In this document: in pieces, positions 1 to 23,434 of the stretch
Layout of the letters: every line of letters starts with the position of its first letter
How positions within the stretch are numbered: the first letter of the stretch is position 1
Source of the DNA: a virus
Strand: one strand, 5' to 3'
DNA length: 23,434 nucleotides
Virus record (IMG/VR): IMGVR_UViG_3300030099_002025
Location: 2,490 to 25,923 of that record
Made by a program: the position numbers and the translations under genes
The notes under the pieces: generated by a model
What the model saw: only the letters and a program-made list of their open reading frames with translations
Told to the model about the DNA's origin: nothing
The model's database searches: none

Positions 1-3000
1 CCGGAGCAACCCAAGTGAAATTTCCACCTGCATGATTATATGATAATAAGTAATTATCAGTTCCACTACCTGCGGCGTTAGTAACATCAAGATGTGATTC
101 TTGAACTGCACCATTCTTCAATTCTGAACTATCAACTGAATTTGCGTCAATCTGCCCTGCGGCAACTGAACTAAGAGTAGCCAGTGTTCCTAATCCTAAT
201 TCACTTCTTGCCGCACCTGCATTTGCGGCAGTAATTACACCAATCATAGGAGCAGAAGTAGCACCAGTTCCACCACTACTAATTGCTAATGTCGAGGAAA
301 GACCTGCCGCCGTTCCAGTAGTGTTTTGATTCCATGTAGGAACTGTTCCTGTTAATTGATTGTAGTTTACTGATGCTCCTGATAATGCTAAAGTACCTGC
401 TGTATTAGGTAATGTAATTGTAATATCATTACTAGACCCACTCGGATTACCACCTACTAATGTTGTCTCACTATCATCAGCAGTAGAACCTTCAAAGACA
501 ATACCATTACTTGTACTTACAGTTTCTACATTGTTAGTAGTAACAGTACCAGTTACAGTTAAATTACCCGGAATTGAAACTGCGGTACTTCCATCTCCAA
601 TAGTCAGAGCATTATCCGGCATGGCTGCACCAAGAGCAGTCTTTACATTTGCAGTGTCAGTAACATCAGCACCGTCTTCAACATTTATTATTGTTCTAAT
701 ATTTGCTCCTGTTAATTCTTCAACATTACCTGCACCACTAGTTATCCTACCTAATACTCTATTTGTAGCAGAAACATTTTGCATCTTTGCATAAGTTACT
801 GCATCGTTAGCAATTGTTAATGCTGTTGCACCTGTTACATCTCCTGTATGTGTAGCATTAGATGTTAATGTGTTTGCTATGGTTATTGTTCCATCAGATG
901 TAGCAGTTGTAGATATTCCTGTTCCCGCCGCTATTGTTAGTGTATCTCCTTCTGTTATTGTTGAGTTAGTTCCCGCAGTTGTAGCAGTAACAGTAAAACC
1001 ATCACCCATATCTACTGTATCAGTAGTAGAGTATGTTCCTGATAAGTCAGGAATATCTGCCGCTACTAATGCTCTAAATGCAGGTGCGGAGGCACTACCT
1101 GTTGTTGGCCCTGCATACACAACATTAGCATTTGCAGTTCCGGCAAGGTTAGTAGCAGTGTCAGCATTACCTGTGATATTGCTACTTGTTAGTGCTAATG
1201 TCCCTGCCGTAGCGGGTAAAGTAACAGTAGGATTGCCGCTAAATGACGAATGAGCAGGTGCTTGTAATCTCAAATAATGTGCGTTTGATACTTCACAATA
1301 GAAATCAATGTAAGATTGTGTTCCACTGTTTTTAATTTTGATAGAGCCTGAATCAAGGGTTATTCCATTTGAACCTGCAACAGTAAGAGCATTTGTCAAA
1401 TCCCAAGTATCATCAGCATCATCAAAGATGAAAGATGCCTGAGTTACACCATTACCACGATAAACGCTTATGCCACTTGTAGCAGCAGTAGCAGTGTCAG
1501 GAGAACCTTGAGTAGTATTCAATTGTAGAATGTTATCTTCGACTTCAACAGTAGCAGTGTTAATTGTAGTTGTAGTTCCACTAACAATTAAATCTCCTGT
1601 TACAGTTAGACCCCCACCAATAGTAACTAAATCATCTGTTTGTGTTCCAAATACTATATCTCCGCCAAAATCACTGTTGAGTGCAGATTTTAGATTAGCA
1701 ACAGAAACATCGTCATTAGCCGTTCCCGCAATAGATATTGAACCCGCACCATTAGTGATTGTTATGTTGTTTCCGGCAGTCAATGTTGCTTTTGATAATG
1801 TATTACCAGTTGTGTTTCCTATGAGCAGTTGTCCATTGGTGTAACTTGTTTGTCCAGTACCACCACTTGATACTGCTAAAGTAGAAGATAGGCTTCCCGC
1901 ACTTCCACTTGTATTCTGATTCCATGTAGGTACTGTTCCGGTGAGTTGTGAGTAATTCACGCTTGCTCCTGATAGAGCCAATGTTCCAGTGCTTGTAGGG
2001 AAAGAGATTAGGGCTTTGTTATGATTGACGTTGTTTGAGCCTAGTATTACTACATGACCACCCATGTACCCATGTGCAGTACATTGGTAATACAATATAC
2101 TTGGCGTATCTTCTGTTACGGCGATTTGAGTATATGCTCCTGAACTTCCCGCAGAACCGTTAGTTGTTACATTTGTGGTATATGCAGTGGTTTTATTAGC
2201 ATCTAAGTAAAATCTCAATGGGTGTCCTGAGTTTGAACTATCTGATTGGTCAAATCTATAATAATATCCTGATGAAGAAGTTACAGCATCTACTCCGTTA
2301 AGAGATAGAGCAGGGGCTTCTACACCATCCAAGTAATAACCTAAACTACTACCATCACCATAGTAAGGGTGAGAGGTACTTTTACTTGAAACTGTTACTG
2401 CAAATGTTATCGGGTTAGAAGAACTACCATATTTTCCAGTATTTACTCCGGTTGCCGAACTAACAGTTGCCGTATAATCACCTGATTCTGTGTTATTTTG
2501 AGATACCGATATTCCTGTTCCACCTGTTATGTCTACACCAGTAATGTCTCCTGATGATGTACCAAATCCTTGTGCGGCAATGTAATCATAAACTGCATTA
2601 CCAGTAACTAGACCCGCTTCTCCATCAGCAACTCCACTTGAACCATCAGTTGCAACTGCCTTTACTGCCGCCGCCCCTAATCCTAAAGCAGTTCTCGCAC
2701 CGGATGCACTAGTTGCTCCTGTTCCTCCACTTGCTATTGCTAGTGTTGCAGACAGACTACCTGCACTTCCTGTTGTATTTTGGTTTAGTGTTGGTATTCT
2801 AGCAGCATCGAATACTCCATCGTTTATTTTACTAGCATTGAGGTTTGGTATATCAGAAGCAGATAGACCACTGGCTAGTATGTTTATCTCTGCTAGGCTT
2901 GCTGTTATTCCCAAGTTTGTTATTGCGTTGCCTTGTTGTGTAGCAGTTAGTCCCTGACTGTTAGTGTCTACTCTTAGTCTGTTACCTAGTGCTGTTGAAG

Positions 3001-6000
3001 TAGTGGTAGCAAAGTTAGCGTCATCTCCTAAAGCAGCAGCCAACTCATTCAATGTGTCTAGAGCAGCCGGAGCAGAGGAAATTACTCCTGCTACCTCTGC
3101 ATCTACATATGCCTTTATTGACTGCTGACTGGCTACCTTTGTTGCTGAGTTAGATGCCATGTCATCCTCATCCAACAAGTCAGAGGAGATTGAGTAGTTG
3201 TTAGCACTAGCAGCGATACCATCTAGTTTAGTGTGGTCTGCGTCTGTGAATACGTTTGAGTCAGAGGCAGACTCGACTAGTGTTCTGATTTCTGCTGCTG
3301 TTTGGTCAGCAGTAGCAGCAGTTTCAATTCCTGCTAGTTTGTCAAACTGGTCATCAGTCATCAAACCGTGAGCAGATGTTGTTGCATCGGGTATCGTTGC
3401 CGTTATCGTAGAGGCATCTGTTTTTGTCAAGGTTAGAGTATTACCACTATATGATACCGCATTGACTGGTTGTGTAGAACTATCAATGATTATTCTCTCA
3501 TTGATTCTACTAACAGTCACGCTTCCAGTTCCCTCAAAGTTTACTGAAGTAGCACTACCATCCGTTCCTGTTAGTTTCAACTTCTTCGTGTTTGAAACAG
3601 CAGTATCTTCAACGGTGAAAACATATTGTGTGTCATTTGCATCGAAAGAGGTTAGGTCAACATATGCCTTTACAGCCTTTGCAGATGGAACAGAATCATG
3701 AGAACCACTAACAGCAGTCAAATCTGTATCGAACGCTGTTATTCCTGACAGTGATGTTATTGGTGATGAAGTTGTTAGGTAATTACCTGATGCTTGTTTA
3801 GCGTCCAACTGCGTTTGTATAGCGGAGGTCACTCCATCCAAGAATCCAATCTCAGTAGCAGTGAGAGTAGAGGGTATACCATCTAACGCATTAATCTCAG
3901 TGGCAGTTGCTGTTATGCTCAAGTCACTCAGACTACCAGCCTTTCCAGCAAGAGCAGATACTAAGCCAGTCACCTTGCTCTGTGCAATATCAAGAAGTTT
4001 GTCATTTGCTATTGAACCAGCCAATTGAGTGTTTGATATACCTCCACTCTTTACTGTCACTGCTCCACTAGACACATCAAAATCAGCACTGGCAAAGGAA
4101 GCAACTCCTTTGTTTGATGTGGTGGCATCCTCTGCATCTATTGTGAGTGTTCCACCAGTGTCATCGTAGGTTGTGGTGATTCCCTCACCATCGATTATGA
4201 GAGCGTTGACTCTATCATCCACTCTTTCATTAGTGTAGTAGAGATTTGACCCCTCTGCTATGTTTGCAGTTGTGAGAGTTAGAGTGCCTCCTAATGCTAG
4301 ATTACTACCATTGAGCGTTACTGATGAGTTAGCAAGTTTGTCGTTTGCTATGCTTCCAGCAAGTTGTGCATTAGTCACTGAGATGTTTGTCACGTTACTT
4401 GAGAAATCTGCACCTGCTGTTGCTCCGGTATCAATACCCGCTAACTTGGTGTTCAACGAAGAAGTGAAATTGACATCGGATTGTGTATCAGCAGATAGGA
4501 CTCCTGTGCTGCTGTTTATTGTTAGATTAGTCCCGACTTTGATACCACCAAGAACATCTGCCTCTGCCTTTGGCAATGAGAAGAAGTTAGCGTTTGCTTC
4601 TATTCCATCTAACTTAGTTTTGAGTGTATTCGTGAAATTGTTCTGTGTTAGTCCACCATCACCAACAGTGTACTGAGTATCAGTCACAGTTTCGGTGGCA
4701 GATTGTATTCCTATGATATGTCCATTAGAATCTAGAGTTATGTCCTGTATGTAGGTTCTCCCTGAGTTATTTACTGAAGATGCTGCGTTGCTTATAGTGG
4801 GATGCGCTGTTAAGAAACCAGAGTTACTGTTGCTGTAGTTAGACAGGTCGGTATCAACATTCAGAGTATCCCCACTTAGCGAGATGTTCGTTCCGGCTAC
4901 TAGATTCGTATCGTCACTGATATCTATCTGTCCTAGTGTTATGGCCTGACCGCTTAGTGATAGATAGTCATGGCTTGAGGTCACTAGAGTTACATCTGTG
5001 GAGTTGTCAGTACCTGCCGTGTCTACATTCAAGAAGGTTCTAGCCGCTGAAGCACTGAGGGTTTCTACAGCCCCACTTCCTGATGTTGTTCTACCTAATA
5101 GGACACCAGTGCCTACATTCTGTAGTTTTGCGAAAGTTATGGCGTCATCTGCTATCCTCGCTGTTGCGAAAGTACCACTGTCTATCTTAGACGCTGCTAG
5201 GTTCGGTATCCTTGCCGTGTCAAGCGTTCCGCTACCTATTGCGCTGGCTGCTAGACTAGGTATGTCAGAAGCCTGTAACTTAGCAAATATGTTTGAAAGT
5301 GCTATCTTTCTCAAACCAGCATCGGCATCATCATACATTATGAAGTCATTAGTTAGGTGTATTGCATTCTCAACTGATAGAGAATCGATGTCAACCTTTA
5401 GAGTAGAGCCAGTTCTATTCAATCCTTCACTAATTGTTAGGCTTGGCTCCTTTCCACTTAGGTCTGAGGTTAGGTTTGTCACCTTAGCCTGTGCGATACT
5501 ACCTGCGAGATGTGCATTCGTCACAGCACCATCTGCAATGGCAGCAGAAACAATTGCATCATCTGCAATCAACGCAGAGGTAATTGCGTCATCTGCTATT
5601 AGTGCAGTTGTTATCGCATCGTCTGCTATCTTTGCAGTGGTAACTGCATCATCTACTATCTTGATAGTGGCTACAGCATCAGTGGCTAACTTAGCACTTG
5701 TGACAGAGGAGCCTTGTAATTTAGCAGTGCTAACTGAATCATCCACTAGTTCAGTTGTATTTACAGTATTACCTGCTAATGCTGTGGATAATGTGACATT
5801 TCCTGAACCATCAAAGGATACTGCACTAGCAGTTACGTCACCTGATAATGCAAAGTTTCTACCAGTGGTCAATGTGTTAGCCGATGATACTGTTCCAGTC
5901 ACGTTACCAATGAAGGTTCCTGCAACGAATGTCTCAGAGCCAACTGTCCACCTTCCTGCACTTTCATCCCAAATCAGTGTCTTGTTTGCATCATCTCCCC

Positions 6001-7330
6001 TTTCGACTTCTATACCTGCATCTTCACTTGCGCTACCTGTTGCATCAGAGTTTAGAGTGATTATGCTATCTCCGATGTTCACGGTGTTTGAGTTGACTGT
6101 GGTTGTTGTTCCAGATACTGTTAGATTGCCTCCAACAGTAAGATTTCCGGAGAATGTAGCAGTGTCATCTGATTGGTTTCCTATTGTGAAATCACCACCC
6201 ATATCTGCATCCAACGCTGTCTTGACTCTAGCAGTGTTAGTGACATCTGCACTTGCTTCTACCCCTAACATTGTAAGTAGATTAGCAGGGGTTATTTCCT
6301 CTATATTGCCAGCACCCGAAGAGTCTCTTCCGAGTATTCTATTTGTAGCAGATACGTTTTGTATCTTAGCGTATGTTATAGCATTGTTCGCTACGTTTCC
6401 CTCGACTATAGTAGCATCATCAATCTTAGCCGAAGTCACTGCGTCATCTTCTATCATATCAGTAGCGACCTGCACCTCTCCAATCGCACCAGCAGTGGCC
6501 GCACCCAAGAGTCTGTTGTTCGTTGTCGTGTGTTGCATCTTTGCAAACGTGACAGCATCATCTGCAATCTTATTGGTTGTAACAGCACTAGTTCCTAACT
6601 TCGTTTCTGTTACTGCTCCGCCGGTTATCTTAGCCTCAGTTACTGCATTATCTGCTAAGTTACTAGCATCTAGACTAGTGATATCGTTCGTGGTTGCAAG
6701 TGTCCTAGCACTGCTACCAACACTAGGAAATGATATTGCACCAGCGTTTCCTGCTTTAACAACAGTCCCATCGGCGTTTATCCTAAGCGTCTCTGCACTG
6801 CTGTTTATCGCTGAGAACTCTCTGCTTGTCTGAGTGTATCCCACATACTGATGTGGTCTATCAGTTGCATCATTGTTAGAACCTGCTGTTATCTTTACGA
6901 TTATTATTGGAATGTCACCTGACTGCAACTCAGCAACAGTTGCCACACTAGTAGTTGTCTTTCCAGTGACAGCACCGTGTCTCCATGCTAAGGCATTGGA
7001 GGAGTTTGCTACGATAACGCCATACCAATCAGCAGAGTTAGGACTTATCGTATCTGTTCCTGATGTAGTAGTAGTCAATGTTGCCCCTGATACACTAACG
7101 AGTTTCCCTGAACGTAGTATGGTTCCACTTGCAACTTGAAAATGTGTTGTGCTACTAGTGGTTCCTTGAGTTAAACCAAAACCACTCAATGCTCTATTTT
7201 CACCAGTTGCAGTTTGGAGTGCCTTAATTATCCCTGAATGTATATTGTCCGTTCCATCTTTTAATTGGTCAGAACTTAGCGTAGAAGGATTTGTTGCCAT
7301 TGTTGTAATTAAGCCGGGATTTGTACTCAT
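1..7330 (-). CDS. Giant modular tail fibre protein (3' end cut by window)
   Basis: The frame is open from an ATG at 7330 to the window edge, giving at least 2443 residues with no in-frame stop seen. The ATG overlaps the previous gene's TGA (ATGA) and is preceded by a strong ribosome site, GAGGTGGAT. The protein is Thr/Ser/Ala/Asn/Asp/Gly-rich, beta-prone and lacks a signal peptide. The N-terminal ~150 residues are non-repetitive and probably attach it to the tail tip. After that come mosaic repeats: several AK[IM]Q...NR.LGR modules, SGTTTTVN modules, eight decapeptides at residues 529-608, SGGTGATS linkers, and a cupredoxin-like domain near residues 1630-1765. This is typical of long trimeric fibres of marine phages, and the role is presumably receptor binding at the distal tail. 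The C-terminal tip and any chaperone domain lie outside the window. Function as fibre is inferred from composition, repeats and place after the hub; an adhesin-like virion decoration is the alternative. Confidence 0.85.
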   Translation of the reverse strand, partial: MSTNPGLITTMATNPSTLSSDQLKDGTDNIHSGIIKALQTATGENRALSGFGLTQGTTSSTTHFQVASGTILRSGKLVSVSGATLTTTTSGTDTISPNSADWYGVIVANSSNALAWRHGAVTGKTTTSVATVAELQSGDIPIIIVKITAGSNNDATDRPHQYVGYTQTSREFSAINSSAETLRINADGTVVKAGNAGAISFPSVGSSARTLATTNDITSLDASNLADNAVTEAKITGGAVTETKLGTSAVTTNKIADDAVTFAKMQHTTTNNRLLGAATAGAIGEVQVATDMIEDDAVTSAKIDDATIVEGNVANNAITYAKIQNVSATNRILGRDSSGAGNIEEITPANLLTMLGVEASADVTNTARVKTALDADMGGDFTIGNQSDDTATFSGNLTVGGNLTVSGTTTTVNSNTVNIGDSIITLNSDATGSASEDAGIEVERGDDANKTLIWDESAGRWTVGSETFVAGTFIGNVTGTVSSANTLTTGRNFALSGDVTASAVSFDGSGNVTLSTALAGNTVNTTELVDDSVSTAKLQGSSVTSAKLATDAVATIKIVDDAVTTAKIADDAITTALIADDAITSALIADDAIVSAAIADGAVTNAHLAGSIAQAKVTNLTSDLSGKEPSLTISEGLNRTGSTLKVDIDSLSVENAIHLTNDFIMYDDADAGLRKIALSNIFAKLQASDIPSLAASAIGSGTLDTARIPNLAASKIDSGTFATARIADDAITFAKLQNVGTGVLLGRTTSGSGAVETLSASAARTFLNVDTAGTDNSTDVTLVTSSHDYLSLSGQAITLGQIDISDDTNLVAGTNISLSGDTLNVDTDLSNYSNSNSGFLTAHPTISNAASSVNNSGRTYIQDITLDSNGHIIGIQSATETVTDTQYTVGDGGLTQNNFTNTLKTKLDGIEANANFFSLPKAEADVLGGIKVGTNLTINSSTGVLSADTQSDVNFTSSLNTKLAGIDTGATAGADFSSNVTNISVTNAQLAGSIANDKLANSSVTLNGSNLALGGTLTLTTANIAEGSNLYYTNERVDDRVNALIIDGEGITTTYDDTGGTLTIDAEDATTSNKGVASFASADFDVSSGAVTVKSGGISNTQLAGSIANDKLLDIAQSKVTGLVSALAGKAGSLSDLSITATATEINALDGIPSTLTATEIGFLDGVTSAIQTQLDAKQASGNYLTTSSPITSLSGITAFDTDLTAVSGSHDSVPSAKAVKAYVDLTSFDANDTQYVFTVEDTAVSNTKKLKLTGTDGSATSVNFEGTGSVTVSRINERIIIDSSTQPVNAVSYSGNTLTLTKTDASTITATIPDATTSAHGLMTDDQFDKLAGIETAATADQTAAEIRTLVESASDSNVFTDADHTKLDGIAASANNYSISSDLLDEDDMASNSATKVASQQSIKAYVDAEVAGVISSAPAALDTLNELAAALGDDANFATTTSTALGNRLRVDTNSQGLTATQQGNAITNLGITASLAEINILASGLSASDIPNLNASKINDGVFDAARIPTLNQNTTGSAGSLSATLAIASGGTGATSASGARTALGLGAAAVKAVATDGSSGVADGEAGLVTGNAVYDYIAAQGFGTSSGDITGVDITGGTGISVSQNNTESGDYTATVSSATGVNTGKYGSSSNPITFAVTVSSKSTSHPYYGDGSSLGYYLDGVEAPALSLNGVDAVTSSSGYYYRFDQSDSSNSGHPLRFYLDANKTTAYTTNVTTNGSAGSSGAYTQIAVTEDTPSILYYQCTAHGYMGGHVVILGSNNVNHNKALISFPTSTGTLALSGASVNYSQLTGTVPTWNQNTSGSAGSLSSTLAVSSGGTGQTSYTNGQLLIGNTTGNTLSKATLTAGNNITITNGAGSISIAGTANDDVSVANLKSALNSDFGGDIVFGTQTDDLVTIGGGLTVTGDLIVSGTTTTINTATVEVEDNILQLNTTQGSPDTATAATSGISVYRGNGVTQASFIFDDADDTWDLTNALTVAGSNGITLDSGSIKIKNSGTQSYIDFYCEVSNAHYLRLQAPAHSSFSGNPTVTLPATAGTLALTSSNITGNADTATNLAGTANANVVYAGPTTGSASAPAFRALVAADIPDLSGTYSTTDTVDMGDGFTVTATTAGTNSTITEGDTLTIAAGTGISTTATSDGTITIANTLTSNATHTGDVTGATALTIANDAVTYAKMQNVSATNRVLGRITSGAGNVEELTGANIRTIINVEDGADVTDTANVKTALGAAMPDNALTIGDGSTAVSIPGNLTVTGTVTTNNVETVSTSNGIVFEGSTADDSETTLVGGNPSGSSNDITITLPNTAGTLALSGASVNYNQLTGTVPTWNQNTTGTAAGLSSTLAISSGGTGATSAPMIGVITAANAGAARSELGLGTLATLSSVAAGQIDANSVDSSELKNGAVQESHLDVTNAAGSGTDNYLLSYNHAGGNFTWVAP
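2040..2450 (-). other. Cupredoxin-like domain inside the tail fibre
   Basis: Within the fibre reading frame, about residues 1630-1765 form a non-repetitive Tyr-rich block unlike the surrounding Thr/Ala repeats. It contains GHPLRF (His1703) and, 47 residues later, YYQCTAHGYMGGH, giving Cys1750, His1753 and Met1756. The His...Cys-x2-His-x2-Met set is the ligand pattern of type 1 (blue) copper proteins, and the Cys-His-Met spacing is that of amicyanin. The four ligands are seen in the sequence; the fold and copper binding are inferred. From memory, similar H-P...YYxCxxHxxMG blocks occur in structural proteins of marine phages. The domain may bind copper or may keep only the fold as a rigid module. 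Confidence 0.6.
5507..5746 (-). repeat. Eight tandem decapeptide units (30-bp period) in the fibre gene
   Basis: Residues 529-608 of the fibre are exactly eight units of ten residues, beginning VDDSVSTAKL and ending ADGAVTNAHL, with a core of type ADDAITTALI. Most units carry D-[DG]-[AS]-[IV] followed by two small polar residues, then A/I and a hydrophobic position. At DNA level the period is 30 bp, but codons differ between units, so the repeat is kept at protein level rather than being a recent duplication. Such ladders are common in phage fibre shafts and probably form a beta-helical or triple-stranded fibrous segment. Confidence 0.85.
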
Positions 7331-7704: not shown

Positions 7705-7706
7705 CT

Positions 7707-14666: not shown

Positions 14667-14667
14667 T

Positions 14668-17109
14668 TTAATCACCAAACTCGTAATGGAAGAAAGTCTC
14701 ACTCACATTAGGTGTGAGTGTAGTTATGGATGCAGATGGTGTTGCTCCCCTGTGCATAGATATCTCATACAACTCACCCATGAACTGAGTATTGGTGTTT
14801 GACCCGTCTTTGCCTATTAGACAATCAGATGCGTGAAATCCAAACGTGCCTATGTTTACCTTCGCTCTTGTTACAGGAACGTTATTGACCATCAGTGTTA
14901 CAGTGTTTTTCTCAAAGGAGCAACTTACCTTTGTCACCTGCTCGATGTACAATGCCTCTTTACTCTGAGAGGTGTATATCGTGGAAGTAACAGTGGTAGC
15001 AGGGTCTGCTGCTAGTGTCATAGTGTCTCCTGTCACAGATGAAACTGTGCCTATCAAAGTTCCAGCATTGTCAAAAATCTCTGCTCCTGTGCTTATCTCA
15101 TCTGCTTGTCCTGAGCCAACAGTTATTGAACGTACATTGGTGCTAAAACTACCTAATGTAAGACCCGAACTTATTCCAGTAGAAGTGATGTTTTGTTGAC
15201 CTGCTGAAGCGGCCACCATTGTTACTGTGCTTGAATCTCTAGAGACACTTATTGTTCCGTTGTGTCCACTAGAACCGGCAATCACTGCTCTTAGGTTGTC
15301 AGCGGTATTGCTAGTGCTACTAGCATCATTGATGAAGAACGTCACTCCTCCATTCTCGGTGCTAGTAGAGCCATTGCTCTCTCCATTATCTCCTTTGCTT
15401 GGTTTGTATCTCTTAGTGGTGTTAGAACTATCTGTGATGCTGATGAAGGCGGTAGGGGTGCTTCCCGCTACAAAGTTGTCAAAGGGGTTTGCACTGAAGG
15501 AGACAATGTTATCAGATGTGTACTCAGACTCTATCGCTAATGCTTGGTTTGTTTGATTGTTGGACGCATGGGTGTTTGGTGAGGTAATAGTTACAACTCC
15601 ACTCCCATTGTGTGATGCTGTTCCTGAGCCGAATCCGTTGTTATGGTTGATTGCAGTTGCTAGTGCGTTTGCAGATGCTGTGGCATTTCCCCCAACAACA
15701 ACCTTCACCACATCTGTTCCGTTAGCAGTCTGTCCATTGGCAGCACTAGTGGTGACACTCCCTGTGGAGTGATTAACAGTGGAGCCACTCAAGATTTGTG
15801 AGGAGGGAAAGAACTTGAACTTCTTGGTTACTAGACTACTACCATCTGAGTTACCCAAAGATATAGTGATGAACTCATTGATACTACTACCATTCGCAGC
15901 ATTCAGACCGCCTGAGAATCCTGATACAGTCATTGTATGTGCGCTTCCCTTTACTATGCTTTGATTATACACAGTTCCAGCAGTATCAGCCTGTAAATTG
16001 ACCTTGCTTGTATTACTACCATCTATAGTAGAGTCTATATCGAAATTTCCTGAGTGCAAACTTGAGTTATTGTTGAAATTTATAGCAGCATTCAATGCAG
16101 CGGTAAAACCTGCTGATGTATTCGTACTACTTATGACAGCGATATCTACATCTGCTGTGTAGCCACTAGCCACTTCATCCGGGTCAAAAGGACTACTTGA
16201 GCCTTTGATGGGTCTTCCGTTGTAAGCAACATCTGTATTGGTTCCTGAACCATCATCTGCGCTATGGTCGAAGAAGTGGAAGTTCAGAGAAAGACCACTA
16301 GTGGATGGAATGGTCAGTTTCTTTGTTGCATCATATGTTCCTAGTGTGGATTTAGATACGGTATCGATAGTGACACTGCCTGTTGCTTGTGCAGCAGTAT
16401 TGCCGGATGTATCTAGGGAGCCATTGCTAGTGGTAGGTTGATTATTCACAGTGATAGTCGCAGTGCCTAGTACCTGTGCAGTATTAGTGAAACTAGCCAA
16501 GTTACCTGATATGGTCGCTGTTGCGGTTGGTAGAGAAGCAGTCGCACCAGTAGATACTTGTGCTTTGTTGCTAATTATTCCATTGTAGAGGGCAGTAGCA
16601 TCATAGTATGCCTCAAGACTACTGGTTGATACAAAGACAGGCTGACTGGATATAGTGTGATTAACTACGCTGCTGGTATCTGTTGAATCAGTTATCTCGC
16701 ATACTAACTTGTACTCTGCTGGTTGGTTGAAGTTAGAGGATGTCGTATTCTGTAGAAAGAACTTGAAGTATTGATTGTGAAAGAGCATCATCTTATGGGT
16801 GTCTCTTCCTGAGCCAAAGTAACTGACGCTCTGATAGGATGATGTGGTATCTGCATGGTCATCCAACGAGAGATTAGGACTAGGTGGTGTCTTGGTGCTA
16901 TCTAGTCTTCCTTGACCGGACGTTCGATGTCCAAGGCCATTCACATCATAGGGAGTTATGACTGCTTCAACTGTAAATGGACCACTGTGCCTCCATAGGT
17001 TTCCCTTCTTAGTTGATGTGTTCGTGTCATCGAACTCTATCTTTAGATGAGCGTCACACATGACAGGAAAGACCAATGCTCTCTTCTCACCAACATGCGC
17101 TGTAGTCAT
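14668..17109 (-). CDS. Tail protein with LamG/ConA-like lectin halves split by a repeat insertion
   Basis: The protein has 813 residues from an ATG preceded by GGTGAAGGA. Residues ~35-60 (WRHSGPFTVEAVITPYD) match the opening strand of concanavalin A-like/LamG domains. Residues ~710-800 (VSCSFEKNTVTLMVNN, then CLIGKDGSNTNTQFMGELYE) match its closing strands. Between them are ~530 Ser/Thr/Asn/Ala-rich residues with at least two and probably three copies of a module of the form 'A..L..AIN.NN......G.V.I....'; the A..L..AIN.NN helices are at residues ~330 and ~485, with a weaker copy at ~610. It sits between the distal-tail-like gene and the hub, so it is probably a virion component on the distal tail and may bind surface glycans. 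The lectin fold is inferred from sequence pattern; a purely structural decoration is the alternative. Confidence 0.5.
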   Translation of the reverse strand: MTTAHVGEKRALVFPVMCDAHLKIEFDDTNTSTKKGNLWRHSGPFTVEAVITPYDVNGLGHRTSGQGRLDSTKTPPSPNLSLDDHADTTSSYQSVSYFGSGRDTHKMMLFHNQYFKFFLQNTTSSNFNQPAEYKLVCEITDSTDTSSVVNHTISSQPVFVSTSSLEAYYDATALYNGIISNKAQVSTGATASLPTATATISGNLASFTNTAQVLGTATITVNNQPTTSNGSLDTSGNTAAQATGSVTIDTVSKSTLGTYDATKKLTIPSTSGLSLNFHFFDHSADDGSGTNTDVAYNGRPIKGSSSPFDPDEVASGYTADVDIAVISSTNTSAGFTAALNAAINFNNNSSLHSGNFDIDSTIDGSNTSKVNLQADTAGTVYNQSIVKGSAHTMTVSGFSGGLNAANGSSINEFITISLGNSDGSSLVTKKFKFFPSSQILSGSTVNHSTGSVTTSAANGQTANGTDVVKVVVGGNATASANALATAINHNNGFGSGTASHNGSGVVTITSPNTHASNNQTNQALAIESEYTSDNIVSFSANPFDNFVAGSTPTAFISITDSSNTTKRYKPSKGDNGESNGSTSTENGGVTFFINDASSTSNTADNLRAVIAGSSGHNGTISVSRDSSTVTMVAASAGQQNITSTGISSGLTLGSFSTNVRSITVGSGQADEISTGAEIFDNAGTLIGTVSSVTGDTMTLAADPATTVTSTIYTSQSKEALYIEQVTKVSCSFEKNTVTLMVNNVPVTRAKVNIGTFGFHASDCLIGKDGSNTNTQFMGELYEISMHRGATPSASITTLTPNVSETFFHYEFGD

Positions 17110-17117
17110 TCCTTCAC

Positions 17118-17864
17118 CTATAGATTGTTTATTGGATTCTCTGCTAGAACCGTTGCTATCTCAAACTCAAGAGTGAAGTTGACCGTATTGGGTTGCTCTC
17201 CTGATAGGCCGGTATTGAAAGAACGAATGAAACCAAGCATACCGGGTAGTTCATCAATATTAGATACGTCAGTGAAGAACTCCACAGGTGTCTCCCGTAC
17301 TAAATTCTCAACTCCTATCTCACTCTCTGCCTTATCGTTGATGACTCTCTTGAATCTCTCATCATATCTTCTGTTTTGAAAGGTAAAGGGTATCAGCGGT
17401 AGGACTGACATATCATCGTCCTCGCTACTAGCAGTGTGATAGTTCAGATTAGTATCAACCCTGCTTGGTATGAGTATAATCAGTTTGTTGATGAACTGGT
17501 CGTCCTGTGCTTGGCTGCTATCCACATATGAGTGAATCAACTGTGCCAGTTCAAACGGAGTCATTACCACTTCCTTCGCACTTGAATCGTTCTCTAGTGA
17601 GTCTTTCGATATCGTTTGATTGAGAAGCACACCTGTCAAACTAACAGTCTTAGTAGCAATGCCCATGTCAAATGCAAGGGTCTCTGAGAATCCCTTAGCC
17701 ATAGCGATGAATGGCACTGGAACAGTGGGAACGGTCTTTGCAGTTGATATGTCCACCTCAGTCACGAATAGTGGTATTCTATTGACTGCTCTTGCTCTTC
17801 CTGCATTCAATTCGTTTCTCCTCTGTAGTTCTAGAAATACCTTGAAGTCTGCTGTTGCTGCCAT
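17118..17864 (-). CDS. Distal tail protein (Dit-like), by position
   Basis: The protein has 248 residues. Its ATG overlaps the tape measure TAA by one base (TAATG), and GGTGGTGA lies upstream. It is a soluble mixed alpha/beta protein with no signal peptide or membrane segment. Residues ~60-85 (GFSETLAFDMGIATKTVSLTG) form a beta-rich stretch in which a conserved-looking SETLAF precedes a V-S-L-T-G strand. The C-terminus (VNFTLEFEIATVL) ends in strands of the sort used in tail hexamer rings. The gene directly after the tape measure in siphoviruses usually encodes Dit or a tube initiator that joins tube to hub. The role rests mainly on position; I do not recognise the family. Confidence 0.45.
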   Translation of the reverse strand: MAATADFKVFLELQRRNELNAGRARAVNRIPLFVTEVDISTAKTVPTVPVPFIAMAKGFSETLAFDMGIATKTVSLTGVLLNQTISKDSLENDSSAKEVVMTPFELAQLIHSYVDSSQAQDDQFINKLIILIPSRVDTNLNYHTASSEDDDMSVLPLIPFTFQNRRYDERFKRVINDKAESEIGVENLVRETPVEFFTDVSNIDELPGMLGFIRSFNTGLSGEQPNTVNFTLEFEIATVLAENPINNL

Positions 17865-19837
17865 TAGAATTTCACCACCGATGTTGAAGTCCGGTTGATT
17901 CTAGTGTTTATCTCCCTAGCGACCTTGTTCGCTATGTCTCTTATCTCTGCATCAGAAGCACCGACCCTTCCACTAACTTGCACTGTTATGTTATTAGTGA
18001 CACCACCACCCATCATGGACCTTGTATCTGAATTTTTGAATACCCTTGAGCCTTGGGGCAATCTAACTAGTTCTGGTCCTCGTTCACCTACCATGTGAAC
18101 ACCGGTTCTCGGAACCACGCCTCCTTGTGAGAAACCAAGCATATCTGAGATTGACTTGGCAGCCTTACCCAATGCCTTTCCAGCCTTATCGAATTTCTCA
18201 GGCTTTAGTACGCCTTTGATTGCACTTGCTATGTCGGATAAGGACGGTATTTTGTCCTTTATCAACGTCATAAAGAAGACGATTGTACTAAGTGTGTGAG
18301 ATATGGACAATAGGAAATCTGCTGCTTTATCAGCGTTATCTCTAAGCCCCCCAAACAATTTACTCAAACCTAGTATGAATACTCCCGCTAGGAGAACTGG
18401 AAGCGCAGTAAGACCAACAGTTACAAGTCCAATCAATCCAGCAATTAAAACGATAGTTCCAGTAATTCTAGTGACGCCACTGAGAACATTTGCTATACCA
18501 GCGATTACCTTTCCTAGTGCAGTATCTGCTGTAGCGAACCCCTTGCTGAACAAGGAGGACATGAATGCAACCGCACCAGAGATAATGACGCCTAGCGTTG
18601 CTGTGAACAGTCCAACTGCTATCTTCGCTATTCCCAATAGAATGATACCGAAGGACTCTGCTATTCCCATGAAATCCATAGTAGTAAAGGCCGTAATCAT
18701 TCCCTTTACTCCGGTAAACACATCTCCTAGTCCACTATGAATGAGAGTGAATCCAATCATGAAAACCTCTTTCATAGCATCAAATGCAGTAATGAAATCG
18801 TCTTTGAATTCAGTAAATATCTTTCTTAGTAGCATTATCGACAATAACAACACAAAGAAGGTAGTCATCAGTTTAAGAAAAAATGACACTATTTTTGCGA
18901 TTCCCTTAGAAATTCTTTTTACAAGCGTTACTATATTAGCGAAAGGTGCTTTTAACACTGAGAAAAAACCCCGAACGACACTAGGTTGTTTTTCTTCTAT
19001 ATCGTTCAGTTCGGCTAATTTGTTATTGATTTCTTCTAATACGTCTAGTTGTTTTTTGCTTAACTGCTTGGTTTTGCCGGTATCTTTCATCTCCGCTCTA
19101 ATGTTAGTTGCACCCATTTTGGTTTTGCCTCTGTCATCAATAGTCTCAACATTAAAATCTGCGGCATCTTTCATTTGCTCTATTTCGGCTTTCAATGCTT
19201 CTATTTCTTTTGTACTCTTTCGTTTGCCAAATCTGAAATTTCTTGTATCGTCTGCTACATTTTGAAAGCCTTGTATTATCTTGTATGTGGCACTTTGCTT
19301 TATTAGAGTAGCGAGCAAACCGCCTTGTGCATTTTTTAGTTTATCTACTCTAATTAACTGCTCTTTCATCATCTTATTCAATGCCGCAACTGCCTTTACC
19401 GCATTGTCGTTATTATCGACCATTAAGGCAGAGAAGGTGTCTGACTTTTCTTTTAGTGCTTCAACCAACTTATCTTGGTCTGCTCCTGATGCTGCTAAAA
19501 TCTTAGCAGTGTCCTCTCCGAGTTTTTGAGCATTCAACTCCATCCTGCCTATGTCAGCAAGAACCTTGAGTCTCTTTGCCTCTTTCGCCCTTCTCCTATC
19601 CTCTGCGCTCATTGCAGAGTTGATGAGTTGAATACTAGCCTTCACTCGGTTCTGTATTCTCCAAAGACCAGTTCCTGAGATGAAACGAGAGAATATCTCC
19701 CATCCCTTTGATTCTAGAATAGCGTTAGTTGTGCTTATCGATGCTTGCAATGTGCGCATATCCGATGCGCCTTTGATGAGGAATCGGTCAATCTCTTTGA
19801 AACTCTCAACGATTTTCTCTAACTCGTCATCTGCCAT
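17864..19837 (-). CDS. Tail tape measure protein
   Basis: The protein has 657 residues from an ATG 3 bases after the stop of the chaperone extension. Residues 1-~290 are highly charged and helical, with probable coiled coil. Residues ~315-340, ~390-430 and ~455-505 are hydrophobic segments, as in tape measures that enter the host membrane during DNA ejection. The C-terminus carries the family's hallmark near residues 570-595: GGVVPRTGVHMVGERGPELV followed by RLPQGSRVF. A last helical stretch ends at the stop that overlaps the next ATG. It sets tail length, chaperoned by the G and G-T proteins encoded just upstream. At about 0.15 nm per residue the tail would be near 100 nm. The length is short to average for siphoviruses. 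Confidence 0.93.
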   Translation of the reverse strand: MADDELEKIVESFKEIDRFLIKGASDMRTLQASISTTNAILESKGWEIFSRFISGTGLWRIQNRVKASIQLINSAMSAEDRRRAKEAKRLKVLADIGRMELNAQKLGEDTAKILAASGADQDKLVEALKEKSDTFSALMVDNNDNAVKAVAALNKMMKEQLIRVDKLKNAQGGLLATLIKQSATYKIIQGFQNVADDTRNFRFGKRKSTKEIEALKAEIEQMKDAADFNVETIDDRGKTKMGATNIRAEMKDTGKTKQLSKKQLDVLEEINNKLAELNDIEEKQPSVVRGFFSVLKAPFANIVTLVKRISKGIAKIVSFFLKLMTTFFVLLLSIMLLRKIFTEFKDDFITAFDAMKEVFMIGFTLIHSGLGDVFTGVKGMITAFTTMDFMGIAESFGIILLGIAKIAVGLFTATLGVIISGAVAFMSSLFSKGFATADTALGKVIAGIANVLSGVTRITGTIVLIAGLIGLVTVGLTALPVLLAGVFILGLSKLFGGLRDNADKAADFLLSISHTLSTIVFFMTLIKDKIPSLSDIASAIKGVLKPEKFDKAGKALGKAAKSISDMLGFSQGGVVPRTGVHMVGERGPELVRLPQGSRVFKNSDTRSMMGGGVTNNITVQVSGRVGASDAEIRDIANKVAREINTRINRTSTSVVKF

Positions 19838-19840
19838 CTA

Positions 19841-20047
19841 TCATCCCTTTGCCTTTTCCATTGCCTCCGATTCCAGTTTCTTTACTTCTCCGTGTATTTC
19901 TAGCATCTCTTTGATTAGTTTGGCTGGTGTGTCATAAGCATCCATCGGATTGACTGAGAAGGCAGAGCAGTAGGTGTAGAGCATAATCTTCATCCCCACC
20001 TCGTTATCTACTGCTCCTCCTTTCAACGCTCTTCGGACTAGTTTTCG
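19841..20047 (-). CDS. Tail assembly chaperone T extension, made by -1 frameshift
   Basis: This frame is read as the C-terminal extension of the G-like protein after slippage at GGGAAAC. After the slip, translation continues R-K-L-V-R-R-A-L-K-G-G-A-V and adds 68 residues, for a fusion of about 188 residues when started at 20406. The extension is helical, ending in charged EIHGEVKKLESEAMEKAKG. Its frame is -1 relative to the upstream gene, and it is open across the upstream TAG. Only a poor TTG start (20026) and a distant GTG lie in this frame; AAAGGAGGAG lies just downstream of that TTG, so it cannot serve it. Position between G and tape measure is that of lambda gpT. In that family the G-T fusion bridges tube subunits and tape measure during assembly. 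Confidence 0.8.
   Translation of the reverse strand, partial: RKLVRRALKGGAVDNEVGMKIMLYTYCSAFSVNPMDAYDTPAKLIKEMLEIHGEVKKLESEAMEKAKG
19965..20016 (-). repeat. Inverted repeat downstream of the slippery site
   Basis: GAGCAGTAG at 20016-20008 and CTACTGCTC at 19973-19965 (minus strand) are perfect complements: nine pairs, plus a possible G-U at the base, with a 34-base loop. The first arm starts about 30 bases after the heptamer. It lies in the chaperone T coding region. It could stimulate frameshifting as a long-loop stem or pseudoknot, but the spacer is far longer than the usual 5-9 bases, so the role is doubtful. Confidence 0.35.
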
Positions 20048-20406
20048 TTTCCCATATCATCCCCCATGACATCCATGAATGGATTAGGGAGGATTTCTTT
20101 CAGTTGTGCGCCAACATATGGGTTTAGTCTAATTAGGTCTGTCACCGTTAGGTGTGGCTCAGTCTTCTCTACAAAGTTCTCGACCATGTATCTGTACATC
20201 TTGTTCAGATTGATACCCATAGTCTGACCCTCTGCGTTCATGTCCATAACACTTGACAACGCTTGCTCGACTTGGAGCCATGTGGGTTGCTTTATCCACA
20301 CATTCAGGTATTCTTCAGATTCAGGGTTGACCCTAATCTGATGGCATTCAGTTGCTGTTGCAGCGAACAGCATGTTCTTATCACTTACAATTTTTCTTTC
20401 TGTCAT
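20038..20406 (-). CDS. Tail assembly chaperone G-like protein
   Basis: The protein has 122 residues from the ATG at 20406 (MTERKIVSDK). A GTG at 20418 directly follows an in-frame TAG and overlaps the GGTGG ribosome site, so it is less likely. The protein is acidic and helical. The region VWIKQPTWLQVEQALSSVMD resembles the tail chaperone pattern in which a short beta part is followed by helices. The end (FMDVMGDDMGNEN, then TAG) contains the slippery GGGAAAC. It lies between the tube and tape measure genes, exactly where lambda G lies, and most ribosomes should stop here while a few per cent continue into the extension. Sequence similarity to known G proteins is too low for me to claim; the frameshift and position carry the call. 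Confidence 0.82.
   Translation of the reverse strand: MTERKIVSDKNMLFAATATECHQIRVNPESEEYLNVWIKQPTWLQVEQALSSVMDMNAEGQTMGINLNKMYRYMVENFVEKTEPHLTVTDLIRLNPYVGAQLKEILPNPFMDVMGDDMGNEN
20047..20053 (-). promoter_or_regulatory. Programmed -1 ribosomal frameshift slippery site GGGAAAC
   Basis: On the minus strand the end of the G-like frame reads ATG-GGA-AAC-GAA-AAC-TAG, so the heptamer G-GGA-AAC is in the X-XXY-YYZ phase needed for tandem -1 slippage. It lies 6 bases before the TAG (which is at 20038-20040), and the -1 frame is open into the extension. GGGAAAC is one of the classical heptamers, close to the GGGAAAG of lambda G/T. A G-rich stretch (ATGGGGGAT) about 7-13 bases upstream could act as an internal Shine-Dalgarno stimulator. 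Confidence 0.85.
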
Positions 20407-20429
20407 TTTTCTTTCCACCTACAAACAAA

Positions 20430-20451: not shown

Positions 20452-20492
20452 GGAATAAAAATCGGATAGCGTTCCCTACTTGGTCACGCCTC

Positions 20493-22073
20493 CTACTCAC
20501 TACTTGCCCTACCGCCTACGGAATAGATAGCCCACTTACCAGTGTAAGTAGCACTTGATAGGGTTCTAGCATTAGCCTGTACCTCTACATCGATTGGCCC
20601 CTTGTCTTCAGGGAAAGGAATCGTGACGGAATTGATTAGATAGTCCTCAAACTTCAAGAATATCTTCTCACCAGTATCCTTCTCAAAGGTAAGTGATAGT
20701 TCTCCGCTTGTTCCCTCTTCTCCTGATTCGTTGTCTATTCTCAGTTGGTCCCAAAGTTTGGTGTCGCTAATCAACATAGTTAGCGATATCTCATAGGTTC
20801 TCTGCCCCGGTAGATGAGCAGAAGCAATCTGTCTGTTATAGTTTCCAATGAATCTCTGTGGAGTGAGGTTGTTGTTGATTGTCACTGAGCCAGTCTTGAC
20901 CTTGCCAACTACTTGTCCGAATAGTTTGATAGCACCGTCTGAGAATAGGAATGGATAGTTGTCTGCTAGGCTTGAACCTGAGTATGGTTTTGCGTTTGTG
21001 CTGTAGTTGATGAAACCACTGTCTGCGTACTCACTGCCATCATTACCAACATCGCTAGAGTCGTTTGTTATGGCCTTCAAGATGCTTTGCCCTCTCATTG
21101 GTATGTATCCGTTTGGAGTGTCAAACGCTCTCCTACTTACTAGGTCTAGTGTTGTCTTGAGTTCTTGCCCCTCTTCAAAGTTCAATGTCATTGTATTTAC
21201 TTGACACCCTGTAAATATTCTTGAGTACATATTCGTATTAGGGTTATTGCTATCTAGTTGGGTGCTTCCTGTTCTACCTCTTTTTCCATAAACTACATCA
21301 AGAGCGAATGAAGGTAGTACGTCACTATCTGCCTCAGTGAACGTATATACAAACGGAGATGCAGTGTCTAGTAGGTTGAATGCGTTTAGAGTCCTAGCAT
21401 TACCCGCTCCATCATCTACATCTGGATATGTGTTGCCTTCTATGCCACGAATAATGTCCTCAGATGCCTCTCTAGTTAGTATTCCATTGTGAGTGTTACT
21501 TGATGTTGCTGCGACATCTGATTGTGCAGAGGTGAATGTCATTTCTCCTAGTGTGTAATACAACCAAGAGCCGTTGTTCAATGATAGGTCTAGAGAACCG
21601 CCACTGACAGTCTCTGAGCCTTTGTACTGGTAGTCGAAGTTCCTACCACCGGCAGCAGCGAGATTAAGTTGCTTCATCTCAACCTCTACGTTTGGAGGAG
21701 TAAATGTGTTCACTAGTCCTAGCCAACTGTCAGAGAGAATGCCACCTACTACGGTACTACCTGTCTTTACAGGTCCAGCAACTGGCGCACCGAAACCTAG
21801 TATCGTGATATTGCAACCGCTTGCTGCTGGTGCATCTGTGTCTAGTGTTACGGTGGTTTCATCATTCGCTAGAACAGCGTGATAGGTTGTTGTCCCACTG
21901 TTGACTACTTTAGCCATGCATCCTACATACAAACCTGAAACCAACTTGTAATCAGAACCGGCAGTTGCGGTGAATACCTGACTACCGTTTATTGTTTTAT
22001 TATCAAAATACATGTCCATTTCCGGACATAGCCCTACTTGTGCATTTGCTCCTACGAATACTTCATTACTCAT
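20493..22073 (-). CDS. Major tail tube protein
   Basis: The protein has 526 residues from an ATG preceded by GGAG at 8 bases. It begins MSNEVFVGANAQVGLCPEMD, in the style of phage major tail proteins. Near residues 295-310 it has MTLNFEEGQELKTTLDLVSR, a typical tube-domain strand pair. Near residues 390-450 (VKTGSVTINNNLTPQRFI, then YEISLTMLI) further strands follow, and the end is beta-rich. It is all-beta, soluble and polar, and lies between tail terminator and chaperones, as in most siphoviruses. It is about twice the length of common tube proteins. Residues ~25-95 (including Y-K-L-V-S-G-L-Y-V-G) look like an extra small beta domain that may decorate the tube surface. No sheath gene is next to it, which supports a non-contractile tail. 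Confidence 0.78.
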   Translation of the reverse strand: MSNEVFVGANAQVGLCPEMDMYFDNKTINGSQVFTATAGSDYKLVSGLYVGCMAKVVNSGTTTYHAVLANDETTVTLDTDAPAASGCNITILGFGAPVAGPVKTGSTVVGGILSDSWLGLVNTFTPPNVEVEMKQLNLAAAGGRNFDYQYKGSETVSGGSLDLSLNNGSWLYYTLGEMTFTSAQSDVAATSSNTHNGILTREASEDIIRGIEGNTYPDVDDGAGNARTLNAFNLLDTASPFVYTFTEADSDVLPSFALDVVYGKRGRTGSTQLDSNNPNTNMYSRIFTGCQVNTMTLNFEEGQELKTTLDLVSRRAFDTPNGYIPMRGQSILKAITNDSSDVGNDGSEYADSGFINYSTNAKPYSGSSLADNYPFLFSDGAIKLFGQVVGKVKTGSVTINNNLTPQRFIGNYNRQIASAHLPGQRTYEISLTMLISDTKLWDQLRIDNESGEEGTSGELSLTFEKDTGEKIFLKFEDYLINSVTIPFPEDKGPIDVEVQANARTLSSATYTGKWAIYSVGGRASSE

Positions 22074-22089
22074 TTTTTTCTCTCCAACC

Positions 22090-22617
22090 CTACGCCCTAG
22101 CGAATCTCTTTAGTTCTACTCCTATCTTGTATCCCAATAATCTTTTCCCTCTATCATTTGCTTCGTTTCTTGATGTTAGCCTTACTAAATCTGCATCTGC
22201 CTCGACTGCCGAACTGGTATCGGCGGGTGTTGCATAGACAGTTGGCCTAAAAGCATTATTTTCTAAGATGTATCTCACTACCTTGTATAGTGCCTCTAAT
22301 CTATCCCTAGAAAACGTGTTACTGGTCATGTCTCGTCTATGCAAAACACGCAAATGTAGCGTGAAAGTGAAGTCCTCGTTTCTAACAGAATAATCTATTG
22401 TTGGATACGAGGTATTGGAACTGTCCTCATACACTATGATAACGGATTCTGAGTCGATGTCCACCCGTCTTCCCTCTTGTGGTTCTATTGAACGTATATC
22501 GATGAATTTTGGTGTTGCGTTATGGCTCGCTGTTATTGTTCCCGCTGATACCAATGCAGAGGCAGATGAGGTCCAATTATCAGATAGTAATCTGATTATC
22601 AGCGTTACCTCATCCAT
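22090..22617 (-). CDS. Tail terminator / tail completion protein
   Basis: The protein has 175 residues. Its ATG lies inside the end of the previous gene (13-base overlap), with GGAGAG 9 bases upstream. It starts with the helix EVTLIIRLLSDNW, then has strands including FIDIRSIEPQEGRRVD and VIIVYED. Next come a strand pair (FTFTLHLRVLHRRD) and a helix RLEALYKVVRYILENN, and it ends with a YKIGVELKRF strand. This helix-strand-strand-helix order, with a central 'R..L..LY..V..IL..N' helix, is characteristic of tail terminators (gpU/gp17-like), which cap the tube at the neck. The place directly before the tube gene fits. Family membership is inferred by pattern. Confidence 0.68.
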   Translation of the reverse strand: MDEVTLIIRLLSDNWTSSASALVSAGTITASHNATPKFIDIRSIEPQEGRRVDIDSESVIIVYEDSSNTSYPTIDYSVRNEDFTFTLHLRVLHRRDMTSNTFSRDRLEALYKVVRYILENNAFRPTVYATPADTSSAVEADADLVRLTSRNEANDRGKRLLGYKIGVELKRFARA

Positions 22618-22802: not shown

Positions 22803-22806
22803 GTAA

Positions 22807-23433
22807 TCACCCTATGAAATGTATGATGTCCTTCTTCCCATTCAATATTTTATTTGCCTCTTCAAGCAATATGTCGTGCTTGGTCTTTAGGTCGATGTTA
22901 GAACCTGTCTCAGCAATCAGTATGGAGTTGTCATCATGTCTGATAACTTCAGCAGCAACCAGTTTGGTAGTTGCATCATGAACCGTGGCTGGAACTCTTG
23001 ACTCACCACTTACATATGTCACACGAACTGAGTGAGCATGTAGGAATGGGTAATTCTTCAAGAAGAATATTTTACCGTCTTTGTCTATTGTCCAATAATC
23101 ACCTAGTCTTCTTTGGTCTTGGTTGTCTGTAAACGGAGTCACCTCTGCACTAGTTGATGCTATGGTACAAGCAGAACCGTCATCACTCAATAGTAAGGAG
23201 GATATGATTACTGTGTCTCCTGCTTCGCTATCTGTCGTTGCGTAGAAGAAATCAGATATGTTGATTGAACTGTTTCCTACTGCTGTTACGGACTTAGCAC
23301 TTGTCTCACCAGTGAACTTAGCGGTCTTGTGTGGGAAGACCTCATTGATTGCGTCTGTTACTTGGCTGGCCGTTGTCTTTGGGCCATAGTTATCGAAGAA
23401 ATCAGTTCCCTTGGTAACGACAAATGTGTACGG
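22807..23433 (-). CDS. Head-tail connector (adaptor) protein, 5' end cut by window
   Basis: The frame is open from the window edge to the TGA at 22807, about 208 residues; a TTG at 23190 is internal and not needed as a start. The visible N-terminal part (V-V-T-K-G-T-D-F-F-D-N, then VTDAINEVFPHKTAKF) is followed by beta-rich sequence. The C-terminal half has KIFFLKNYPFLHAHSVRVTY, then VPATVHDATTKLVAAEVIRH and a final helix KHDILLEEANKILNGKK. The 'VP..I..A...L.A.E..R' helix is typical of gp6/gp15-like head-tail adaptors that sit below the portal. The gene precedes tail terminator and tube, which matches. The role is inferred from that motif and order; the fold has an extra ~100 residues at the front. 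Confidence 0.6.
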   Translation of the reverse strand, partial: PYTFVVTKGTDFFDNYGPKTTASQVTDAINEVFPHKTAKFTGETSAKSVTAVGNSSINISDFFYATTDSEAGDTVIISSLLLSDDGSACTIASTSAEVTPFTDNQDQRRLGDYWTIDKDGKIFFLKNYPFLHAHSVRVTYVSGESRVPATVHDATTKLVAAEVIRHDDNSILIAETGSNIDLKTKHDILLEEANKILNGKKDIIHFIG

Positions 23434-23434
23434 G

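What the first reader, a model, noticed from the sequence alone, without database searches (positions are those of the whole stretch)
1..23434. GATC is completely absent from the window
Reading every line and line junction, I find no GATC in 23,434 bases; with equal base use 91.5 would be expected. GATA, GATG and GATT are all common. Codon choice shows selection at the DNA level: Asp is often GAT, but wherever the next codon begins with C, Asp is GAC. Examples are SDQ, ADQ and VDL in the fibre, FDPDEV and DDHA in the LamG-like protein, YDPF in the hub, WDQL in the tube protein and ADQD in the tape measure; I saw no exception in about 15 cases. This is the footprint of escape from a GATC-specific restriction (or methyl-GATC-directed) system in the host.
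Basis: partly seen in the sequence, partly recalled or inferred. Interest (0 to 1): 0.8.

Follow-up and report, generated by a model that had tools for sequence, protein, structure and literature searches.

The report
Archaeal virus genome purged of restriction sites
This marine virus, most likely one that infects uncultured Poseidoniales archaea, has no GATC in the window and has also lost dozens of other short DNA words that restriction enzymes cut, so its genome keeps an indirect record of the DNA-cutting defences its hosts use.

Summary
The window lies in a 25.9-kb contig whose rest holds one GATC, beyond an N gap. Near-complete relatives (84-98 kb) have none or at most two. Over 136 related, partly redundant loci GATC is 1 vs 8,466 expected. 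In the nearest clade 22 of 51 testable 6-bp palindromes are also gone, together with degenerate sites that have enzyme-sharp borders (GDGCHC 0, GAGCGC kept; CCWGG gone, CCSGG kept). No DNA methyltransferase turned up in the virus records searched. Gene content points to magrovirus-like viruses of Poseidoniales. In Poseidoniales genomes AGCT and GATC are the two most depleted of 136 tetramers, and a few carry Dam/DpnM-, EcoRII-, MvaI/BcnI-, Eco47II- and BglII-like genes. Best explanation: long-term purging of Type II restriction sites under host restriction. The kind is known (haloviruses HF1/HF2; Rusinov et al.); I found no report of it for magroviruses. No Poseidoniales enzyme common enough to explain the group-wide GATC and AGCT loss was found.

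The parts
1..23434 (.). Stretch with no GATC, AGCT or CGCG on either strand
   Evidence: exact counts
2..7330 (-). Fibre-like structural gene, at least 2,443 aa, runs off the window
   Evidence: open frame; weak DUF5907 repeat match; codon-level GATC/AGCT avoidance
7327..7710 (-). Small structural-module gene, 127 aa (phrog_5417, unknown function)
7707..14702 (-). Very large structural-module gene, 2,331 aa, no family match
14668..17109 (-). 813-aa structural-module gene, no family match
17118..17864 (-). 248-aa structural-module gene, no family match
17864..19837 (-). Tail tape-measure-like protein, 657 aa
   Evidence: PHROG tape-measure matches, tblastn to GBSV1 and Rhizobium phage tape measures
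20038..20418 (-). Tail assembly chaperone-like gene, 126 aa
   Evidence: phrog_25860
20493..22073 (-). Tail tube protein (PF18906), used to find relatives
   Evidence: Pfam E=2.7e-21; distant match to halovirus HCTV-5 tail tube; 55 related IMG/VR loci
22090..22617 (-). 175-aa structural-module gene
22807..23433 (-). Partial gene entering from beyond the window, 208 aa
   Evidence: open frame

Best explanation
The window is the tail module of a magrovirus-like tailed virus of marine Poseidoniales (Marine Group II) archaea. SHOWN: GATC, AGCT and CGCG have been removed from it, largely through synonymous choices, as part of a lineage-wide removal of many Type II restriction sites; related viruses keep the removal over whole genomes and carry no recognisable DNA methyltransferase. 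INFERRED: host populations carry a changing set of Type II restriction-modification systems, with GATC and AGCT specificities the most persistent. Every incoming genome with an unmodified site risks being cut, so variants without sites are selected until the sites are gone. Because the viruses do not seem to methylate their own DNA, loss of the sites is their protection. Host genomes, protected by methylation, show only partial depletion of the same words.
For: Zero GATC, AGCT and CGCG against codon-shuffle expectations of 68, 112 and 14. Whole relatives: G003 0/395 GATC, 0/266 AGCT, 0/35 CGCG in 84 kb, with no site at all for 18 tested patterns. 136 related loci pooled: GATC 1/8,466, AGCT 62/6,668 (59 in one locus). 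Enzyme-like borders: all six GDGCHC words without AGCT are 0 (about 340 expected) while GAGCGC 38/18, GCGCAC 64/37 and GCGCCC 18/12 are above expectation; RGCGCY 0 while AGCGCA 99/53; CCWGG purged while CCSGG is kept. 22/51 six-bp palindromes at O/E<0.1 against 15/1,936 non-palindromes. Purged sets differ by lineage (GTAC+ACGT, CTRYAG, CGCG), and GATC and AGCT retention are separable: G017 keeps GATC 83/143 but AGCT 0/68; G173 keeps AGCT 121/179 but GATC 0/131. No Dam-, N4/N6- or m5C-methylase in 22-23 virus records, none of the N4/N6 family in 14 more. Host side: AGCT 0.50 and GATC 0.52 are the lowest of 136 tetramers in Poseidoniales samples; in one genome group AGCT, GATC, CGCG are the three lowest palindromes, the same three that are zero here. 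Poseidoniales loci with a DpnM-like methylase beside an Mrr_cat/NOV_C protein, and with EcoRII-C, MvaI/BcnI, Eco47II and BglII family nucleases beside methylases.
Against: No host is known for this contig; the Poseidoniales link rests on magrovirus-like gene content and k-mer agreement (Spearman 0.50-0.66, p 0.006-0.05). Known GATC enzymes are rare in the sampled Poseidoniales (DpnM-like confirmed in 2/146, DpnII family 0/146), which is hard to square with a group-wide purge unless restriction genes turn over fast, are missed in incomplete genomes, or belong to unrecognised families. No enzyme for AGCT was identified; site specificities of host enzymes are predicted from homology only. Non-Poseidoniales archaea were not sampled as a control for the host depletion.
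Confidence: 0.82

Rival explanations
1. Self-avoidance: the virus encodes its own site-specific endonucleases that destroy host or rival DNA, and lacks the sites to spare itself.
For: The viruses encode nucleases (ERCC4, PD-(D/E)XK/Cas4-like, pyrimidine-dimer glycosylase), and the purge is group-wide for GATC and AGCT although such host enzymes are rare.
Against: Twenty or more specificities would be needed and they differ between lineages; no Type II nuclease family was among the Pfam matches shown for 71 proteins of G003 (25 of 37 families shown); AGCT, GATC and CCWGG are depleted in the host chromosome too.
Confidence: 0.04
2. Methyl-directed (Type IV / Mrr-like) or phosphorothioate-linked defence: hosts attack modified GATC (or depend on GATC modification) rather than using a classic Type II system for this site.
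For: A Haloferax Mrr enzyme targets methylated GATC (PMC7230728) and an archaeal phosphorothioate antiviral system uses GATC (PMC6459918, which also lists a marine group II/III euryarchaeote with DndCD). A widely shared methyltransferase without a nuclease beside it occurs in many Poseidoniales.
Against: It cannot explain the degenerate six-bp borders; it may apply to GATC or AGCT alone. Dnd genes were not searched for here.
Confidence: 0.13
3. Compositional or mutational effect: the host's k-mer habits, palindrome instability or methylation-driven mutation removed these words.
For: Host genomes are also depleted in AGCT, GATC and CGCG.
Against: Host depletion is only to 0.36-0.68 for AGCT and GATC while the virus value is 0.00; other palindromes (CTAG 0.97, CCGG 0.88, TCGA 0.80) are near normal in the same viruses; the deamination product of AGCT (AGTT/AACT) is not in excess (0.99); non-palindromic members of degenerate sites vanish with sharp borders.
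Confidence: 0.01

Closest known systems
HF1/HF2-group haloviruses (Hafunaviridae)
   Same: Tailed archaeal viruses with GATC and CTAG absent and many six-bp palindromes absent (PMC7230728). Re-counted here on 50 kb of HF2: GATC 0/238, CTAG 0/103, CCWGG 0/54, 28 of 34 six-bp palindromes at O/E<0.1.
   Different: HF2 keeps AGCT (207/227) and purges CTAG, while this lineage does the reverse; HF2 carries an N-6 methylase and an integrase, whereas no DNA methylase was found here.
Halovirus HCTV-5 (Druskaviridae)
   Same: Nearest named hit of the tube protein (23% identity); GATC 0/210 in 50 kb.
   Different: Fewer six-bp palindromes lost (9/35); it encodes two annotated AdoMet-MTases and queuosine-type genes.
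Magroviruses (order Magrovirales: Aoguangviridae, Apasviridae)
   Same: Genome size 84-103 kb, structural and replication genes in opposite orientation, PolB, clamp loader, ATP-dependent DNA ligase, PD-(D/E)XK nuclease (PMC10768690 and PMC12999244).
   Different: Reference genomes ON649702 and OR863078 were not held, so family placement is untested; the magrovirus papers I could read do not mention site avoidance.
Restriction-site avoidance in prokaryotic viruses in general (Rusinov et al. 2018)
   Same: Avoidance of orthodox Type II sites; complete or near-complete elimination in about a tenth of viral genomes (PMC6286503).
   Different: Here many sites at once, across a whole virus group of uncultured hosts, with no self-methylation found.

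Membership tests
Restriction-site avoidance (anti-restriction by loss of sites) | Site number far below expectation, at synonymous positions | tested here: met
   0 GATC vs 68±6, 0 AGCT vs 112±9, 0 CGCG vs 14±3
Restriction-site avoidance (anti-restriction by loss of sites) | Loss follows Type II recognition patterns, degenerate ones included | tested here: met
   GDGCHC, RGCGCY, CCWGG lost, neighbouring words kept
Restriction-site avoidance (anti-restriction by loss of sites) | Host carries restriction enzymes for the lost sites | tested here: inconclusive
   Single Poseidoniales loci with DpnM-like + Mrr_cat/NOV_C, EcoRII-C, MvaI/BcnI, Eco47II, BglII-like genes; none is widespread; no AGCT enzyme identified
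Restriction-site avoidance (anti-restriction by loss of sites) | No self-methylation of the lost motif | tested here: met
   no D12, N6_N4 or C5 methylase family in the virus records searched; no convincing methylase motif pair in ORFs; many records are fragments
Magrovirales | Genome about 90-110 kb, tailed-virus structural module, own replisome with PolB, oppositely transcribed modules | tested here: met
   met for relatives such as G003; the window contig itself is only a 26-kb fragment
Magrovirales | Phylogenetic grouping with reference magroviruses | not testable with these tools
   reference records not held
Magrovirales | Poseidoniales host | tested here: inconclusive
   k-mer agreement only
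DpnII-type host restriction | DpnII-family nuclease (PF04556) in the host order | tested here: not met
   0 of 146 Poseidoniales genomes

The most novel reading that the evidence does not exclude
GATC and AGCT are missing across almost the whole sampled virus group, yet recognised GATC enzymes are rare and no AGCT enzyme is identified in Poseidoniales. The most novel reading is that these archaea carry a widespread, so far unrecognised defence (or fast-moving pool of defences) aimed at GATC and AGCT, whose specificities can be read from the missing words of their viruses.
Probability: 0.3. Interest if true: 0.7.

Novelty: new member of a known kind. Interest (0 to 1): 0.45.

Why it matters
The hosts are abundant, largely uncultured ocean archaea whose restriction repertoire is hard to study. 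If the reading is right, the missing words in their viruses list the enzymes those hosts deploy, lineage by lineage, and give a second, sequence-only way to link viruses to hosts. It also shows a virus group that seems to rely on site removal rather than self-methylation, over whole 84-98-kb genomes.

Tried and rejected
Recoded stop codons (TAG=Q, table 4): not needed, genes are open under the standard code on the minus strand. Direct megablast to known phages: no match. A viral Dam or other methylase as the cause or shield: none found. An adjacent nuclease beside the widely shared Poseidoniales N4-type methylase: its neighbours are a metallopeptidase and small proteins without a nuclease match, so it looks like an orphan. 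DpnII nuclease family in Poseidoniales: 0 of 146. Mutational decay of AGCT by deamination: no excess of the product. A simple general avoidance of palindromes: contradicted by near-normal CTAG, CCGG and TCGA and by non-palindromic members of degenerate sites. Reference magrovirus records, two magrovirus papers and one marine methylome paper were not held.
Full report
CHECK. The window contains no GATC on either strand. A maximal-order Markov model predicts 104; shuffling synonymous codons within the ten minus-strand reading frames predicts 67.9±6.4 and never fewer than 48. Ser AGY before T is AGT 35/35 and Ala after A is never GCT (0/178).

CONTEXT. The window is bases 2490-25923 of a 25,923-base virus record. 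The remaining 2,489 bases, joined across ten N, contain a single GATC at position 174. All long genes lie on the minus strand under the standard code and form a tail module: tail tube (PF18906), tail assembly chaperone, tape measure, several large unassigned proteins and a fibre-like protein. The tube protein matches halovirus HCTV-5 distantly and 55 IMG/VR loci at 30-99% identity.

WHOLE RELATIVES. G003 (84 kb, tube 83% identical) has 0 GATC (395 expected), 0 AGCT (266), 0 CGCG (35), and no site at all for 18 restriction patterns tested together. G005, G009, G010 and G012 have no GATC or AGCT in 87-96 kb; G011 has 2 and 6. G007 has 2 GATC and 2 AGCT, all in its first kilobase, which also has a CCWGG site and a higher G+C, as expected of a recent import or a chimeric contig end. 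Over 136 loci fetched with two further queries (some contigs are represented more than once) GATC is 1 against 8,466 expected and AGCT 62 against 6,668, with 59 of the 62 in one locus.

MORE THAN GATC. In the nearest eight contigs (0.47 Mb) 22 of 51 testable six-bp palindromes have O/E below 0.1, against 15 of 1,936 non-palindromes. Many of those 15 belong to degenerate restriction sites. The borders are sharp: every testable member of GDGCHC is zero (about 340 expected), while GAGCGC, GCGCAC and GCGCCC are above expectation; RGCGCY is zero while AGCGCA and GGCGCA are above expectation; CCWGG is gone while CCSGG is present. Such borders are what restriction enzymes have and what composition or palindrome instability does not predict. 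Purged sets vary between lineages (GTAC and ACGT in G009 and G015, CTRYAG in G004-G008, GTWAC in G017). GATC and AGCT loss are separable: G017 keeps GATC (83/143) but not AGCT; G173 keeps AGCT (121/179), evenly spread, but not GATC.

SHIELDING. No Dam-type (D12), N4/N6 or m5C methyltransferase family was found in 22-23 virus records, nor N4/N6 in 14 more, and no ORF of the assembled contigs shows a convincing methylase motif pair. Many records are fragments, so this is strong for the near-complete ones only. One G003 protein matched a PHROG labelled methyltransferase; it was not traced to a gene and no DNA methylase family supports it.

HOST. Gene content of the relatives (PolB, replication-factor-C-like ATPase, ATP-dependent DNA ligase, ERCC4 nuclease, class II ribonucleotide reductase, SU10-type capsid protein, two oppositely transcribed modules, 84-103 kb) fits the ICTV description of magroviruses of Poseidoniales. 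I located Poseidoniales genomes with a Marine Group II 16S probe recalled from memory and sampled 20 genomes. Of 136 tetramers AGCT (0.50) and GATC (0.52) are the two most depleted. In the genomes that carry a widely shared N4-type methylase, the three lowest palindromes are AGCT 0.36, GATC 0.48 and CGCG 0.58, the same three that are absent here. CCWGG is also depleted (0.62-0.68) while the six-bp sites are near neutral in the host. The samples were chosen by me and the group contrast is confounded with lineage.

HOST ENZYMES. In 146 Poseidoniales genomes the N4/N6 family occurs in 85, m5C in 19, D12 in 22 (many weak), DpnII nuclease in none. Two D12 proteins (L280, L281) have DpnM, then E. 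coli Dam, as best solved-structure relatives; L281 sits beside a protein with NOV_C and weak Mrr_cat nuclease matches. Other loci pair methylases with EcoRII-C (L248), MvaI/BcnI (L190), Eco47II (L241) and BglII-like (L249) nucleases, whose prototypes cut CCWGG, CCWGG or CCSGG, GGWCC and AGATCT. These specificities are inferred from homology and from established knowledge of the prototypes. The widely shared N4-type methylase (closest solved relative 2zie) is syntenic and has no nuclease beside it.

MECHANISM. Shown: the purge, its breadth, its enzyme-like borders, its separability by site, the lack of recognisable viral methylases. Inferred: restriction by Poseidoniales Type II systems selects site-free variants; with no self-methylation, site loss is the protection; persistent specificities (GATC, AGCT) leave group-wide loss, fluctuating ones leave lineage-specific loss. 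The weak point is that no GATC or AGCT enzyme is common in the sampled hosts. Fast gene turnover, incomplete genomes or an unrecognised defence are the options.

COMPARISON. HF1/HF2 haloviruses show the same kind of purge (GATC and CTAG absent, 21 six-bp palindromes absent across the group; PMC7230728), and archaeal tailed viruses either methylate or purge GATC (PMC8651126). About a tenth of prokaryotic viral genomes show near-complete loss of some site (PMC6286503). My counts on 50 kb of HF2 (28/34 six-bp palindromes gone) are more extreme than here, and cyanophage Syn19 (GATC 272/309; 3/36) shows that the pattern is not universal. The finding is therefore a new, broad member of a known kind. 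Papers on magroviruses that I could search do not mention it, but key papers were not held.

Noticed in passing
window 1-23434 and G000-G008 contigs: CTGCAG, CCATGG, AGTACT, TTCGAA, TGGCCA and over a dozen more six-bp palindromes, plus CCAGG/CCTGG, are absent or nearly absent in the near clade (0.47 Mb).
   Followed up: yes
L106:1-1000 (start of contig G007): Two GATC, two AGCT and one CCAGG/CCTGG cluster in the first kilobase at higher G+C in a fibre-like frame; one purged-type site was found in the other 97 kb. Recent fibre import or chimeric contig end.
   Followed up: partly
L030 / G017 and L346 / G173: Natural exceptions: G017 keeps GATC but purges AGCT and GTWAC; G173 keeps AGCT and CCWGG but purges GATC and ACGT.
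   Followed up: partly
L190-L219 (Poseidoniales): A syntenic N4-type methylase (TSPPY motif) in roughly half of the sampled Poseidoniales has no nuclease beside it; its presence goes with lower AGCT and lower CTAG in the host, yet these viruses keep CTAG.
   Followed up: partly
L281:758-2382: Convergent DpnM-like methylase and NOV_C/Mrr_cat-like protein: candidate GATC restriction-modification pair in a Poseidoniales genome.
   Followed up: partly
L215, L193, L195 (beside the N4-type methylase): Fast-changing small proteins with a hydrophobic segment and often a Q/P-rich tail occupy the same slot next to the methylase in several genomes; no family match.
   Followed up: no
clade A contigs: Non-palindromic words CCCAG, CACGAG, GCAGGC and CTCCAG are also strongly depleted, which could reflect Type IIS/IIG or Type III enzymes.
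   Followed up: no
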